Shown here in pieces: positions 5,784-10,753 of a stretch of DNA of 10,753 bases. Location: the NCBI GenBank assembly GCA_030698575.1, contig JAUYMQ010000149.1, positions 1-10,753 on the forward strand, read 5' to 3'. Below the pieces are notes generated by a model. The model did not search any database, was not told the origin of the DNA, and was given only the letters and a program-made list of their open reading frames with translations. Positions within the stretch are counted from its first letter, which is position 1; the number at the start of each line of letters is the position of its first letter. Origin of the DNA: Deltaproteobacteria bacterium. Its GTDB lineage: Bacteria > JAUYMQ01. Made by a program: the position numbers and the translations under genes.

Positions 5784-5815
5784 TTGACCTTATACCTTAG
5801 TAGAGGGTGTACATT
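5784..5815 (+). promoter_or_regulatory. MerR-type promoter/operator of the mercury operon
   Basis: A -35 box TTGACC (5784-5789) and a -10 box TACATT (5810-5815) are separated by 20 bases, the over-long spacer typical of MerR-family promoters. Inside the spacer is an imperfect dyad: TATACCTT (5791-5798) and AGGGTGTA (5804-5811), with five bases between and six of eight positions matching. MerR activators bind such a dyad and underwind the DNA so that the polymerase can use the misaligned boxes. The start of transcription would fall near 5822, upstream of merR itself, so merR would regulate its own transcript together with the genes after it. Confidence 0.75.
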
Positions 5816-5839
5816 CCTCCCGGAAGGAGAACCAAACGA

Positions 5840-6250
5840 ATGGACGGACTGAAGATCGGTGAGGTGGCCAGGCAGGCGGAGGTCAACCTCCAGACGCTCC
5901 ACTACTACGAGCGGCGTGGCCTGATTCCAAAACCTCCCCGAACGGATTCGAACTACCGCTCGTACCCGGCTGAAGCCGTGCGACGGGTTCGCTTCATCAA
6001 GCGCGCCCAGGAGCTGGGCTTCACGCTGAAGGAAATCAAGGACCTCCTCTCGCTGCGAGCGGCCCCCAGGACTCGCTGCGCCGACGTTCGCAGGCGGGCA
6101 AAGATCAAGGTCCAGGACATCGAGGGGAAGGTCCGCACCCTGCGGGCCATGCGAAAGGCGTTGAACAAGCTCATCGGCGAGTGTTCCGGAAAGGGGCCAG
6201 TCACGGAATGCCCGATTCTCGATGCCCTGGACCCGGAGGACAAAAGGTAA
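5840..6250 (+). CDS. merR: MerR family transcriptional regulator, mercury-type
   Basis: This metal-responsive regulator has 136 residues. The N-terminal winged helix-turn-helix (LKIGEVARQAEVNLQTLHYY to about residue 70, with YYERRGLI and SNYRSYP) binds the operator. A long dimerisation helix (residues ~80-112) follows. The three cysteines that bind Hg(II) in Tn501 MerR are all here at matching spacing: Cys80, Cys115 and Cys124, the last two separated by eight residues (ECSGKGPVTECP). This favours mercury over copper, zinc or lead as inducer. The start at 5840 is preceded by AAGGAGA; a frame open from 5807 would begin within the promoter. Its stop overlaps the next start codon (TAATG). Unlike Tn21-type operons, the regulator is not divergent but is the first gene of the operon, so expression should be self-adjusting. 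Confidence 0.92.
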   Translation: MDGLKIGEVARQAEVNLQTLHYYERRGLIPKPPRTDSNYRSYPAEAVRRVRFIKRAQELGFTLKEIKDLLSLRAAPRTRCADVRRRAKIKVQDIEGKVRTLRAMRKALNKLIGECSGKGPVTECPILDALDPEDKR

Positions 6251-7017
6251 TGCCGCGCGTCGAACTGATCTACGATCCGGACTGTCCGAACAGGCGTGAA
6301 GCCAGGAAGGCCCTGCTCGAGGCGTTCGAGGAAGCCGGCGTCCGGCCATCCTGGACCGAGTGGGACCGCCAATCGGCCGAGAGCCCGCCCCACGTGCGGC
6401 GGTACGGATCACCCACGATCCTGGTGGATGGCCGGGACATCGCGGGGGGGGAGCCGATGGACGGTTCCGAATCCTGTCGAATCTACGACCACGGCTCCGG
6501 CGCGCTGCGGGGCGTGCCTCCGGTGTCACGCATCGCCGCAGCGCTGTCAAACAGCCGCCCTCCCGCGTCGGCGCGACGCGCAGAGGGCGGCCCTCACCGC
6601 TGGCGTATTGCGGCGTCGTTGCCGGGCGTCGGGGCTGCGCTCCTGCCGATCGGCGCATGCCCCGCGTGCTGGCCCGTCTACGGAGGCGTACTCGGATCGC
6701 TCGGCTTGGGGTTCCTCCTCCAATCGAGCTATTTGCTCCCCGTCAGCGTTGCGCTGCTTGGCTTCGCGCTCTTCGCCCTTGCCTTCCGCGCCGGGAGTCG
6801 CCGGGGCTACGGCCCGTTCGCTCTGGGGATCGCATCGATCACCCTCATCCTGGTGTTCAAGTTCGGCTACGTGCTCGATGCTCCCGTCTACGCCGGGCTC
6901 GCTGGGCTCGTCGCGGCGTCCGCGTGGAACGGCTGGCCGACGGGAAAGAAGGAGGCGCGCTCGTGTTCGAAATGCGCCCCCGTCGAACGTGCTATTGCCA
7001 TCGAGAACTCGCCATAA
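6250..7017 (+). CDS. Thioredoxin-fold domain fused to MerC-like mercury transport membrane domain
   Basis: A 255-residue two-part protein. Residues 1-~100 (VELIYDPDCPN with Cys12, then GSPTILVDGRDIAGG and ESCRIYD) look like the small thioredoxin-fold proteins found in mercury operons, with one cysteine instead of CxxC at the usual site. Residues ~118-230 contain about four hydrophobic helices. The first carries Cys137-Pro-Ala-Cys140 (IGACPACWPVYGG), in the place where MerC and MerT have the cysteine pair that passes Hg(II) across the inner membrane. A cytoplasmic-looking tail bears Cys239-x2-Cys242. The likely role is uptake of Hg(II) with hand-over between cysteine pairs. The start ATG overlaps the merR stop by one base (TAATG), so translation is probably coupled. 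The assignment to MerC is by topology and motif; the domain fusion is read directly from the uninterrupted frame. Confidence 0.75.
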   Translation: MPRVELIYDPDCPNRREARKALLEAFEEAGVRPSWTEWDRQSAESPPHVRRYGSPTILVDGRDIAGGEPMDGSESCRIYDHGSGALRGVPPVSRIAAALSNSRPPASARRAEGGPHRWRIAASLPGVGAALLPIGACPACWPVYGGVLGSLGLGFLLQSSYLLPVSVALLGFALFALAFRAGSRRGYGPFALGIASITLILVFKFGYVLDAPVYAGLAGLVAASAWNGWPTGKKEARSCSKCAPVERAIAIENSP

Positions 7018-7033
7018 AGAAGGAGATGTCGAA

Positions 7034-7303
7034 ATGACAACCACGCGGAAAATCGAGGTGTTCAGCGCCGGATGTCCGGCCTGCGAGGAGACGATTCAAC
7101 TCGTCGACCGACTTGCCTGCCCGTCGTGCGAGGTAACCATCCTCGACATGAACGAACCGCCCATCGGCGAACGCGCGAGGCGGCTGGGCATCCGCTCCGT
7201 TCCCGCCGTCGTCATCAACGGAATGCCGGCTGGCTGCTGCGCCGGCCGTGGTCCTGACGAGACCACGCTCCGGGCCGCCGGGCTCGGGCGGCCGGTCGCA
7301 TAG
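7034..7303 (+). CDS. Small thioredoxin/glutaredoxin-like protein, cysteine-rich
   Basis: This 89-residue cytoplasmic protein has a thioredoxin-like fold. KIEVFSAGCPAC puts the active-site-like pair Cys14/Cys17 after the first strand, and SVPAVVINGMPAG supplies the cis-proline (Pro57) and the following strand. Extra cysteines are Cys29/Cys32 (CPSC) and adjacent Cys68/Cys69 (GCCAGRGPDE), making six in all. Such proteins occur in mercury operons and probably carry or buffer Hg(II), or reduce thiols, between the transporter and a reductase; that role is inference. AGGAG ends eight bases before the ATG, and the gap from the preceding gene is 16 bases, so it belongs to the merR transcript. It is the last gene before a 137-base gap. 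Confidence 0.8.
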   Translation: MTTTRKIEVFSAGCPACEETIQLVDRLACPSCEVTILDMNEPPIGERARRLGIRSVPAVVINGMPAGCCAGRGPDETTLRAAGLGRPVA

Positions 7304-7367
7304 CCATGGACGGATGCGCCCGCGGCGACGGCTGACTCTCCCATGCGGTGGTATTGCATCCCGAACG

Positions 7368-7391
7368 GCCGGATTACATCCTCGATCCGGC
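7368..7391 (+). terminator. Possible hairpin at the end of the mer operon
   Basis: GCCGGAT (7368-7374) pairs perfectly with ATCCGGC (7385-7391) around a ten-base loop, 65 bases after the last mer gene. No T-run follows immediately, so termination is only a possibility. Confidence 0.3.
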
Positions 7392-7440
7392 GGGCGAGAT
7401 TCCTGGAATCCTTTTGCGCCTCAGGTCATCCCAAGAGACG

Positions 7441-8415
7441 ATGCGCTTACGCTTGACTCCTCGCCGGTCGACCGCTCTCTCCGCGTCCGCCCTATGCCTA
7501 GCGCTCCTGTGGATCGCGGCCGAGGCCCCCGGAGTGCGGGCCGGCCCGAATGGCTTCGATCTCACCCGACATGCCGTACCGCCCTCGCAAATCCTGTCGG
7601 GAGGTCCCCCCCGCGATGGCATTCCGGCGCTCCTTCATGCCCGATTCGTTCCCGCGTCCCAGTCCCAGCTCCAGCCCGACGACCGCGTGCTGGGAATTGC
7701 CATCGGCGGGCGGGCCAAGGCCTATCCCCTTCGCATTCTCAACTGGCACGAGGTCGTGAACGACGAGATCGGGGGCTTGCCGGTCGTCATCACCTACTGC
7801 CCTCTGTGCGCTTCCGGCGTCGCCTTCGACCGCAGGGTGGACGGCCAGACGCTCGTTTTCGGGGTGTCCGGCCTGCTGTACAACTCGAACGTCCTGCTGT
7901 ACGACCGGCAGAGCGAGAGCTTGTGGACACAGATCGGGATGCGGGCCGTGGCGGGGCCTCGCACCGGAGCACGCCTTCGATCGCTGCCGCTCTACCACGG
8001 AACATGGTCGGCCTGGCGCGCCCGCCACCCCGGGACCCTCGTTCAATCCTTCGATACAGGCTTCATACGCAGCTACGACCGCGATCCCTACGTCGACTAT
8101 CCGGCCACCCAGCGCCTCATGTTTCCGGTGGAGCCGCGATCCAACCGCCTTCCGGCCAAGACCCTCATCCTGGGAGTAGAACAAGCCGGTGAGGCCCGGG
8201 CCTATCCGCTCGGCGATCTCCGAGGGACGGCCGGTCCGGTCCGGGACCGGCTCGGGGGCCGCGAGGTTCGGATTGTCTACGATCTTGAGGCCGGAACGGC
8301 CACGGTCCTCGACGAGAAGGGCCGCGAGATTCAAAGTCTCGTGACATACTGGTTCGCCTGGTACGCGTTCCATCCCGACACAGGCTTGTGGCAGGGCACC
8401 GCATCCAGCCGATGA
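7441..8415 (+). CDS. Secreted DUF3179 domain-containing protein
   Basis: This 324-residue protein belongs to the uncharacterised DUF3179 family. Residues 1-34 form a signal peptide: basic MRLRLTPRR, a hydrophobic stretch ALCLALLWIAA, and a VRA cleavage site before GPNG. The mature part has the family features: RVLGIAIGGRAKAYPLRIL, WHEVVNDEIGG, then TYCPLCASGVAFDR with Cys120/Cys123, SGLLYNSNVLLYDRQSESLW, and a second AYPLG repeat near the C-terminus. The CPLC pair suggests a disulfide or metal site, but no activity is established for the family. I chose the ATG at 7441 because it gives a clean signal peptide, although its ribosome binding site is weak; a GTG at 7348 in the same frame would bury that signal. 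It is 137 bases from the mer genes and 59 bases before a DoxX-like gene, which is probably co-transcribed. Confidence 0.85.
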   Translation: MRLRLTPRRSTALSASALCLALLWIAAEAPGVRAGPNGFDLTRHAVPPSQILSGGPPRDGIPALLHARFVPASQSQLQPDDRVLGIAIGGRAKAYPLRILNWHEVVNDEIGGLPVVITYCPLCASGVAFDRRVDGQTLVFGVSGLLYNSNVLLYDRQSESLWTQIGMRAVAGPRTGARLRSLPLYHGTWSAWRARHPGTLVQSFDTGFIRSYDRDPYVDYPATQRLMFPVEPRSNRLPAKTLILGVEQAGEARAYPLGDLRGTAGPVRDRLGGREVRIVYDLEAGTATVLDEKGREIQSLVTYWFAWYAFHPDTGLWQGTASSR

Positions 8416-9171: not shown

Positions 9172-9207
9172 CAGAGACCCCGGCAGCGCGTGCTGCCGGG
9201 GTCTCTG
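9172..9207. terminator. Strong perfect hairpin, probable terminator
   Basis: CAGAGACCCCGGCAGC (9172-9187) is followed after four bases by its exact reverse complement (9192-9207), a 16-bp GC-rich stem. Only two T residues follow directly on the plus strand, so it lacks the classical T-run. It could terminate transcription from the DoxX side, or end a small RNA from the structured region just upstream. Confidence 0.55.
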
Positions 9208-9597
9208 TTAACAACCGACGGCCGATTTCAGCCGTCTATGATTTGGCTCCCCTGAACCTATTCTCTCGATTTGTCTCTGCTCGCTCGCTCTGAAAATAGC
9301 CCGATTTGCACCGGAATCGCCGATTCAGCGTTTCGGCGTAAACATCGCGTGCCCGAGAGCCTGCCGAGCGGGCCGTCGCAGATGCAACTCGCCGAGATGA
9401 AAGAGAGAATCAGAGCAGAGCGCTGCTCCAAGCTGGGCTATCCCCTGGGCCAATCCTTGGTGCGATTCGGTACAATTTCCGGGCGAATCGTTATACCGCG
9501 AACCGCGGGGCTTATACCTCTCGTTGCCCCGTCCAATGCGCGACCGAAGACAAGTCCCAGGAGTCCTCAACGTGACCTGTTAGGCCGTGGGCAGGTG

Positions 9598-9647
9598 CGG
9601 TCCGGGTTCATGGGTGACAGATCGGTCCAGGTACATGGGTGACACTT
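9598..9647. repeat. Two tandem 25-bp repeats, likely a solo IS481-type insertion sequence end
   Basis: Two units (9598-9622 and 9623-9647) start with CGGTCC and share CATGGGTGACA; they match at 21 of 25 positions. Read on the minus strand each begins TGTCACCCATG, which resembles, from memory, the tandem transposase-binding ends of IS481-family elements, whose tips begin with TGT. The outermost TGT would be at about 9645, with the element body to the left, but no transposase gene or second end is visible there. It is most likely a remnant. Confidence 0.55.
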
Positions 9648-9694: not shown

Positions 9695-10753
9695 CTAATA
9701 AGACGGCGGACGAGGCCGCGCTACTAGCGGAGGTGCCCATGGATCGGCGCGGGAAGCAAAACGCGCTCTGAGGTACTCGCTCCGGAGTTGCTGGCGCTCT
9801 CGGTATGCCTTGGAATATCGCTCTGACTGGCAGAGACAGTTTCTTGAAGCAAGAATGTTGCAGACGGTTCCCTGATCCGGCAGCCGGAGGGCGTCGAACT
9901 GAAAAACGTTGTGCCCACCCTTTGGCAAGCTCCAGCCATACACGCGCCGTTTGATCAGATCCGCAACCATGAAAACCGCCGGCATGAGGGACACGAAACT
10001 GATCGTAGCGGCCGGCAAGGCCTTGTCTGGCTGCATTGTCGAGCACATGCGCTCGACGGCCTGATCGAACCTCAGGCCGGCGTAAGATCCTACATCGTCG
10101 GTGATCGAACGATCCTTTCTTCTTCCCGCCACAACTTCGATGAGATCTGGGTCAATGATTCTTCCACTTCTTGCGAGGTGACGAATCACCTCAACGGGCA
10201 GGCCCAGGTAATTGGCGAGTTCAACCTCAGGGTTAAACCCGAGGCCCCGGGGCTCGGGGTACAAGTCGTTGAGGCATGCGTTCTCCAGCCTATCGAATTC
10301 GTGCAATGAGAGCATCCAACGTGACAGATCAGTGCCACCATTGACCATTACACTGGTCAGCTCCGTTTGTAGGGTGCGACGGAGGGGTCCGCTATCAAGG
10401 CAACACCAGACGTATCCAAGCCGTTCCCGCGCCGCTTCCACAAACCGTTCGAAAGGCATTATGTAAGCGAAGGCGTCGACAGATGGATGAAGATCTTTAA
10501 TGAAACGTTGGGCAGCCAGGACCTTGGGTAGGTTCCTGTTCGCCTTGGGATGGGCACTGATAAACAATCGCTCCTCGTTGCTGGGAGAGATGTGATCCAT
10601 ATCGACCAGGTCAAGCGATATCTCGAGCTTCGGCAGGCACCCCAAGACGTAGGTGCAGGCGCTTCCGATCGCACCCAATCCGAAGGCGCAGGCGTGGCCG
10701 AGTTCGCAGCTCTCTGGGAAAGATGGGTTGGCAGGCCCCTTTTCGTTGATACT
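9695..10753 (-). CDS. E1/ThiF-like ATP-dependent adenylating enzyme, 5' part outside window
   Basis: The frame is open from the right edge to a TAG at 9695, giving 352 visible residues. E1/ThiF/MoeB enzymes activate the C-terminus of a ubiquitin-like or sulfur-carrier protein by adenylation. The nucleotide site is intact: GLGAIG (near visible residues 25-30), DMDHISPSNEER matching the D.D.(5-6)SN..R motif, Lys in NLPKVLAAQ, and the CCLD aspartate after the fourth strand. ENACLNDLYPEPRG aligns in position with the cysteine-bearing loop of the family, and a late NCLCQSERYSKAY may be half of a zinc site. AATISFVSLMPAVFMVADLIKR is the typical helix before the C-terminus. The gene is less GC-rich than its neighbours, which suggests transfer. 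The last ~20 residues (ADPWAPPLVARPRPPSY) look like read-through into flanking DNA next to the repeat, so the natural end may have been altered. The specific subfamily and substrate are not resolvable here. Confidence 0.75.
   Translation of the reverse strand, partial: SINEKGPANPSFPESCELGHACAFGLGAIGSACTYVLGCLPKLEISLDLVDMDHISPSNEERLFISAHPKANRNLPKVLAAQRFIKDLHPSVDAFAYIMPFERFVEAARERLGYVWCCLDSGPLRRTLQTELTSVMVNGGTDLSRWMLSLHEFDRLENACLNDLYPEPRGLGFNPEVELANYLGLPVEVIRHLARSGRIIDPDLIEVVAGRRKDRSITDDVGSYAGLRFDQAVERMCSTMQPDKALPAATISFVSLMPAVFMVADLIKRRVYGWSLPKGGHNVFQFDALRLPDQGTVCNILASRNCLCQSERYSKAYRERQQLRSEYLRARFASRADPWAPPLVARPRPPSY

What the first reader, a model, noticed from the sequence alone, without database searches (positions are those of the whole stretch)
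9695..10753. E1-like adenylating enzyme in low-GC DNA at the right edge, possibly part of a ubiquitin-like conjugation or defence operon
The adenylation motifs are intact, but the sequence between them (a single ACLND cysteine site, a late NCLC pair, a long helical insert from about RGLGFNPEVELANYLGLP to DDVGSYAGLRFDQAVERM) does not read like housekeeping MoeB or ThiF. Stand-alone and multidomain E1-like proteins occur in bacterial ubiquitin-like systems (for example CBASS Cap2 and Bil operons) and in poorly characterised relatives. The reduced GC content and adjacent insertion sequence remnant fit an accessory island. The partners would lie upstream on the minus strand, beyond the edge.
Basis: partly seen in the sequence, partly recalled or inferred. 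Interest (0 to 1): 0.62.

Follow-up and report, generated by a model that had tools for sequence, protein, structure and literature searches.

The report
Contig-cut bacterial ubiquitin-system E1 enzyme
At the edge of this DNA piece lies the end of a gene for a ubiquitin-activating-type (E1) enzyme of the bacterial "Bil" kind, a recently described antiviral protein-tagging machinery; it is a distant but recognisable new member, not a new kind of system.

Summary
The ORF is real: 352 codons without a stop, on the minus strand, cut at its 5' end by the contig end (the window is a whole contig of a 653-contig MAG). It is an E1-like adenylating enzyme (ThiF fold). It is not MoeB, ThiF or TcdA: the same genome has a separate MoeZ-like enzyme. 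The closest named family is BilD, the E1 of the Bil (BilABCD) ubiquitin-like conjugation operons. The solved BilD structure is the top sequence hit, aligned over almost the whole fragment, and the top structural hit (Z 25, with a gap to the next family). Eighteen loci encode relatives (about 20-28% identity) with the same conserved residues. In neighbourhoods read in detail the E1 sits with Ubl, E2-like and JAB genes, usually last. The "long helical insert" is the catalytic-cysteine domain. The likely active cysteine is C237, which aligns with BilD Cys417. The N-terminal domain (about 185 aa) and partners are missing and were not found elsewhere in the assembly, so the operon is inferred. Verdict: a divergent new member of a known kind, of modest interest.

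The parts
9695..10753 (-). 3' part of a BilD-like E1 gene: active adenylation domain (AAD) with catalytic-cysteine domain; 5' end cut by the contig end, about 185 codons (inactive adenylation domain) missing
10664..10681 (-). GLGAIG nucleotide-binding loop (aa 25-30)
   Evidence: G25, G27, A28, I29, G30 invariant in 18 sequences
10523..10603 (-). D51, N59, R62, K77: ATP/Mg adenylation residues of the E1/MoeB/ThiF superfamily
   Evidence: invariant; roles from general knowledge of E1 enzymes
10379..10396 (-). D120...R125 (LDSGPLRR), Mg-binding Asp and adjacent Arg
   Evidence: invariant; role from general knowledge
10265..10276 (-). First half of the zinc knuckle, C160-x-x-D163 (CxxC in nearly all relatives, CxxD here)
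10004..10261 (-). Helical insert = catalytic-cysteine (CYS) domain (about aa 165-250)
   Evidence: alignment with BilD; helices 175-183, 187-196, 202-211, 215-220, 225-239 in the model
10043..10045 (-). C237, likely catalytic cysteine, aligned with BilD Cys417; the only Cys between aa 161 and 297
   Evidence: Cys417 as BilD thioester residue from PMC11354881
9830..9838 (-). Second half of the zinc knuckle, C306-L-C308
   Evidence: C308 invariant, C306 nearly invariant
9239..9587 (.). Dispersed repeat downstream of the E1 gene, two further copies in the genome

Best explanation
The fragment is the C-terminal two thirds of a BilD-like E1 enzyme. It most likely binds ATP/Mg with its active adenylation domain, adenylates the C-terminal glycine of a partner ubiquitin-like protein, takes it as a thioester on C237 in the mobile helical CYS domain, and hands it to the cysteine of a partner E2 (BilB-like), which conjugates it to target proteins; a JAB protease (BilC-like) would process the Ubl or remove it. 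In studied Bil operons this tagging protects against phages (own knowledge). Shown here: the family, the domain layout, the intact adenylation residues, the conserved cysteine, and the Ubl/E2/JAB/E1 gene sets of relatives. Inferred: the presence of partners upstream of the contig end, enzymatic activity, zinc binding with an Asp ligand, and the antiviral role.
For: The best PDB sequence hit from the single sequence is BilD 8tyz, query aa 6-320, E=4e-4, ahead of NEDD8 E1 at 0.03. A four-sequence profile including it hits BilD over its full length at E=3e-113. Best structural hits: 8tyz/8tz0, Foldseek E=7e-17 and 1e-16 against 8e-12 for the next family; VIA Z 25.1 (295 residues) against 21.2 (211 residues) for ThiF. 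PADLOC best model is BilD. 18 genome loci encode relatives from Pseudomonadota, Acidobacteriota, Bacteroidota and Bacillota; C160, C237 and C308 are invariant. Relatives sit in Ubl - E2 - JAB - E1 gene sets (families). BilD has an N-terminal inactive domain plus an active domain with an ~80-aa helical Cys domain, and Cys417 forms the thioester (PMC11354881); residue 417 of 8tyz is the Cys aligned with C237 in the family alignment. The genome has its own MoeZ-like enzyme on C344.
Against: Identity is only about 20-28%; the protein is on a long branch with unresolved placement. The zinc knuckle has lost one Cys. No E2 or E1 N-terminal part was found elsewhere in the assembly, though the E2 search rings in three carriers and the contig end hides the neighbours. 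The only JAB in the genome belongs to a MoaD-like sulfur-carrier cluster. The phmmer alignment to 8tyz puts C237 about three residues from Cys417. The region around C237 is low-confidence in the model (pLDDT under 50 at 235-251). The structural match is not independent of the alignment, which holds BilD relatives.
Confidence: 0.85

Rival explanations
1. An ordinary housekeeping MoeB/ThiF/TcdA-type adenylyltransferase for sulfur carrier proteins.
For: Same superfamily; ThiF and MoeB are close in fold, Z 21 over about 211 residues; an AU test only mildly rejects grouping with ThiF/MoeB rows (p=0.039).
Against: NCBIfam MoeB/ThiF models score 12-15 bits against cut-offs of 159-510; the Cys domain and the BilD match over the whole fragment; the genome already has a MoeZ-like gene scoring 288 bits against ThiF.
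Confidence: 0.04
2. A CBASS Cap2 (E1-E2 fusion) or Bub-type E1 rather than Bil-type.
For: Same fold; BubCD structures are among the structural hits (Z 19-20); the N-terminal part that would show a fused E2 is missing.
Against: PADLOC E1-E2 best E=0.047 over aa 24-93 only, against BilD 5e-5; BilD ranks far above BubCD by sequence profile and by fold.
Confidence: 0.06
3. A decaying pseudogene fragment of a Bil operon left beside mobile DNA.
For: Long branch, CxxC changed to CxxD, a repeat next to it that elsewhere precedes a transposase, partners not found in the assembly.
Against: No stop or frameshift in 352 codons; all adenylation residues, C160, C237, C306 and C308 kept.
Confidence: 0.05

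Closest known systems
BilD (E1 of the BilABCD operon; PDB 8tyz, 8tz0)
   Same: Active adenylation domain with inserted helical Cys domain, catalytic Cys position, zinc knuckle in two halves; alignment over nearly the whole fragment
   Different: Only about 20% identical; CxxD instead of CxxC; N-terminal inactive domain not visible; own operon not visible
BilD-like E1 of Bacillus sp. V3-13 (L050) in a Ubl-E2-E1-unknown-JAB cluster
   Same: Best local match (26% over 281 positions), Cys domain, weakly grouped in one tree (94/78)
   Different: Has CxxC; gene order differs from the rhizobial operons
E1s of multi-ubiquitin operons (Pfam E1-N, Multi_ubiq) in rhizobia (L006, L023, L024)
   Same: Cys domain with conserved Cys, E1 last of the set
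   Different: Different N-terminal family (E1-N); about 19-21% identity to the fragment
CBASS Cap2 and BubCD
   Same: Bacterial E1 fold in defence-associated systems
   Different: Weaker match in sequence and fold

Membership tests
BilD (Bil-type bacterial E1) | Active ThiF-type adenylation domain with intact ATP/Mg residues | tested here: met
BilD (Bil-type bacterial E1) | Helical Cys domain of ~80 aa inserted in the active domain, with catalytic Cys (Cys417 in BilD) | tested here: met
   C237 invariant with 17 relatives and aligned to residue 417 of 8tyz in the family alignment; alignment shifts by about three residues in the single-sequence comparison; activity not tested
BilD (Bil-type bacterial E1) | Four-Cys zinc knuckle (CxxC ... 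CxC or CxxC) | tested here: inconclusive
   three Cys kept, one replaced by Asp; Asp can bind zinc but this was not tested
BilD (Bil-type bacterial E1) | N-terminal inactive adenylation domain | not testable with these tools
   contig ends where it should begin; fragment aligns from BilD residue about 187 on; not found on other contigs
BilD (Bil-type bacterial E1) | Operon with Ubl (BilA), E2 (BilB) and JAB (BilC) | not testable with these tools
   upstream DNA absent; met in relatives; no E2 elsewhere in the assembly
MoeB / ThiF (housekeeping) | NCBIfam curated score cut-off | tested here: not met
   12-15 bits against 159-510
CBASS Cap2 | N-terminal fused E2 domain and neighbouring CD-NTase | not testable with these tools
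   N-terminus and upstream DNA missing; PADLOC E1-E2 models match weakly, best E=0.047

The most novel reading that the evidence does not exclude
The protein represents a separate, deep lineage of Cys-domain bacterial E1s, with an altered zinc knuckle and possibly different Ubl/E2 partners, in an uncultured phylum not known to carry Bil systems.
Probability: 0.2. Interest if true: 0.45.

Novelty: new member of a known kind. Interest (0 to 1): 0.3.

Why it matters
It extends Bil-like ubiquitin-type E1 enzymes to a MAG from a phylum for which no other genome is held here, and shows that the Cys-domain E1 core tolerates about 75-80% divergence and a Cys-to-Asp change in the zinc knuckle. It does not open a new kind of system.

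Tried and rejected
Single-protein scans of genome contigs and viral contigs found no close relative. No match in phage records. A search of 290 genomes with the single protein gave only weak partial matches, up to aa 193 of the fragment, taken to be ordinary ThiF/MoeB-like proteins. A 12-row profile over 386 genomes found one other full-length relative, G028. A 12-row alignment was too diverse for a pattern scan. Own-genome searches for the E1 N-terminus and the E2 found nothing (control for the E2). The JAB gene on C377 sits behind a MoaD-like gene and reads as ordinary. The weak ThiF match on C528 is the nucleotide-binding part of a FAD-dependent reductase-like ORF. Primary Bil papers are not held, so BilD facts come from the review PMC11354881 and from my own knowledge. 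A single-sequence structure prediction as an independent control was not run.

Full report
What is there. The window is the whole of contig C205 (10,753 bases) of a metagenome-assembled genome of 4.1 Mb in 653 contigs, 91.6% complete. No other genome of its phylum is held. The minus-strand frame 9695-10753 is open for 352 codons and still open at the contig edge, so the 5' part of the gene is lost. The frame matches Pfam ThiF (E=8.6e-10).

Housekeeping or not. Curated MoeB, ThiF and related NCBIfam models score only 12-15 bits, far under their cut-offs. The genome has another ThiF gene on C344 that matches the full ThiF profile with 288 bits and continues into a rhodanese-like part, that is, a MoeZ-type enzyme. 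Its only JAB gene sits behind a MoaD-like gene on C377. These cover ordinary sulfur-carrier chemistry.

Which E1 family. With the single sequence, the top hit among all PDB chains is BilD (8tyz), over aa 6-320, E=4e-4, followed by NEDD8 E1 at 0.03. PADLOC's best model is BilD (E=5e-5), and the CBASS E1-E2 models are at 0.05 or worse. tblastn against plasmids found E1s of rhizobia and haloarchaea, and a scan of 84,980 species genomes with a five-sequence alignment found 18 relatives in Pseudomonadota, Acidobacteriota, Bacteroidota and Bacillota (phyla). A model built on these sequences (mean pLDDT 69, pTM 0.63) is most like BilD: Foldseek E=7e-17 against 8e-12 for the next family; VIA-align Z 25.1 over 295 residues against 21.2 over 211 for ThiF. 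The model used BilD relatives as its alignment, so this agrees with, rather than independently proves, the sequence result.

Anatomy. G25, G27, A28, I29, G30, D51, N59, R62, K77, D120 and R125 are invariant among 18 sequences. C160 and C308 are invariant and C306 nearly so; with residue 163 they form the two halves of the zinc knuckle known from E1 enzymes. Between the two halves lies the helical insert, and its only cysteine is C237. C237 is invariant among the 18 and aligned with the "ICGG" cysteine of 8tyz, residue 417, which a review names as the thioester cysteine of BilD (Cys417, PMC11354881). The single-sequence alignment is off by about three residues here, whereas BLASTP with the Bacillus relative places the cysteines together. 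The order zinc half, Cys domain, zinc half is that of true E1 enzymes (general knowledge).

Neighbourhood. In relatives the E1 is usually the last gene after Ubl, E2 and JAB genes: R. etli p42a DUF2604-Metal_CEHH-JAB-E1, Sinorhizobium, multi-ubiquitin versions in Bradyrhizobium and R. leguminosarum, haloarchaeal, Mesorhizobium, Mycolicibacterium and Deinococcus versions, an Acidobacteria MAG and Sediminibacterium. In Bacillus sp. V3-13 the order is Ubl-E2-E1-unknown-JAB. If the window follows this plan, the partners lie beyond 10753. Own-genome searches found neither an E2 nor the E1 N-terminal part, while the same E2 profile rings in three known carriers; most likely that stretch was not assembled or not binned.

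Origin. The E1 gene has 57% GC (64% at third positions) against 63-67% (77-83%) in three other genes of the contig, and next to it is a repeat found twice more in the genome, once in front of an integrase-core transposase gene. This fits an acquired piece of DNA, without proving it.

How far it is from known ones. Trees put it on a long branch (2.2-2.4 changes per site), with weak grouping to the Bacillus E1 (94/78) that is not kept in a second tree. Grouping with ThiF/MoeB rows is mildly rejected (p=0.039), and grouping with the E1s lacking a Cys domain is not rejected (p=0.42). It is thus a divergent new member of the Bil-type E1 kind, and a modest finding.

Noticed in passing
L008:5377-6792, L025:4417-5850, L026:4432-5793, L027:4393-5814: BilD-like E1s of haloarchaea, Mesorhizobium huakuii and Mycolicibacterium lack the catalytic Cys domain although their gene sets still have E2-like (single conserved Cys) and JAB genes; how they pass on the Ubl is open.
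   Followed up: partly
window 9239-9587; G000:C72:1-311; G000:C458:2754-3049: Dispersed repeat (77-79% identical copies); the C458 copy starts 114 bases before an integrase-core transposase gene.
   Followed up: partly
window 9598-9644: Two tandem copies of a 22-base word (CGGTCCGGGTTCATGGGTGACA, 91% alike) between the repeat and the E1 gene end, possibly a mobile-element end.
   Followed up: no
window 9172-9207: Perfect 16-base inverted repeat with a 4-base loop, terminator-like, after the DoxX/MauE-like gene.
   Followed up: no
window 5807-8415: MerR regulator, MerC-like membrane protein and DUF3179 protein in a row, possibly a metal-response cluster.
   Followed up: no
L050:2430-3272: 280-aa protein without Pfam or PADLOC match between E1 and JAB in the Bacillus sp. 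V3-13 cluster.
   Followed up: no
L007:7638-8996: TIR-domain and caspase-family genes shortly after the R. etli Bil-type operon.
   Followed up: no
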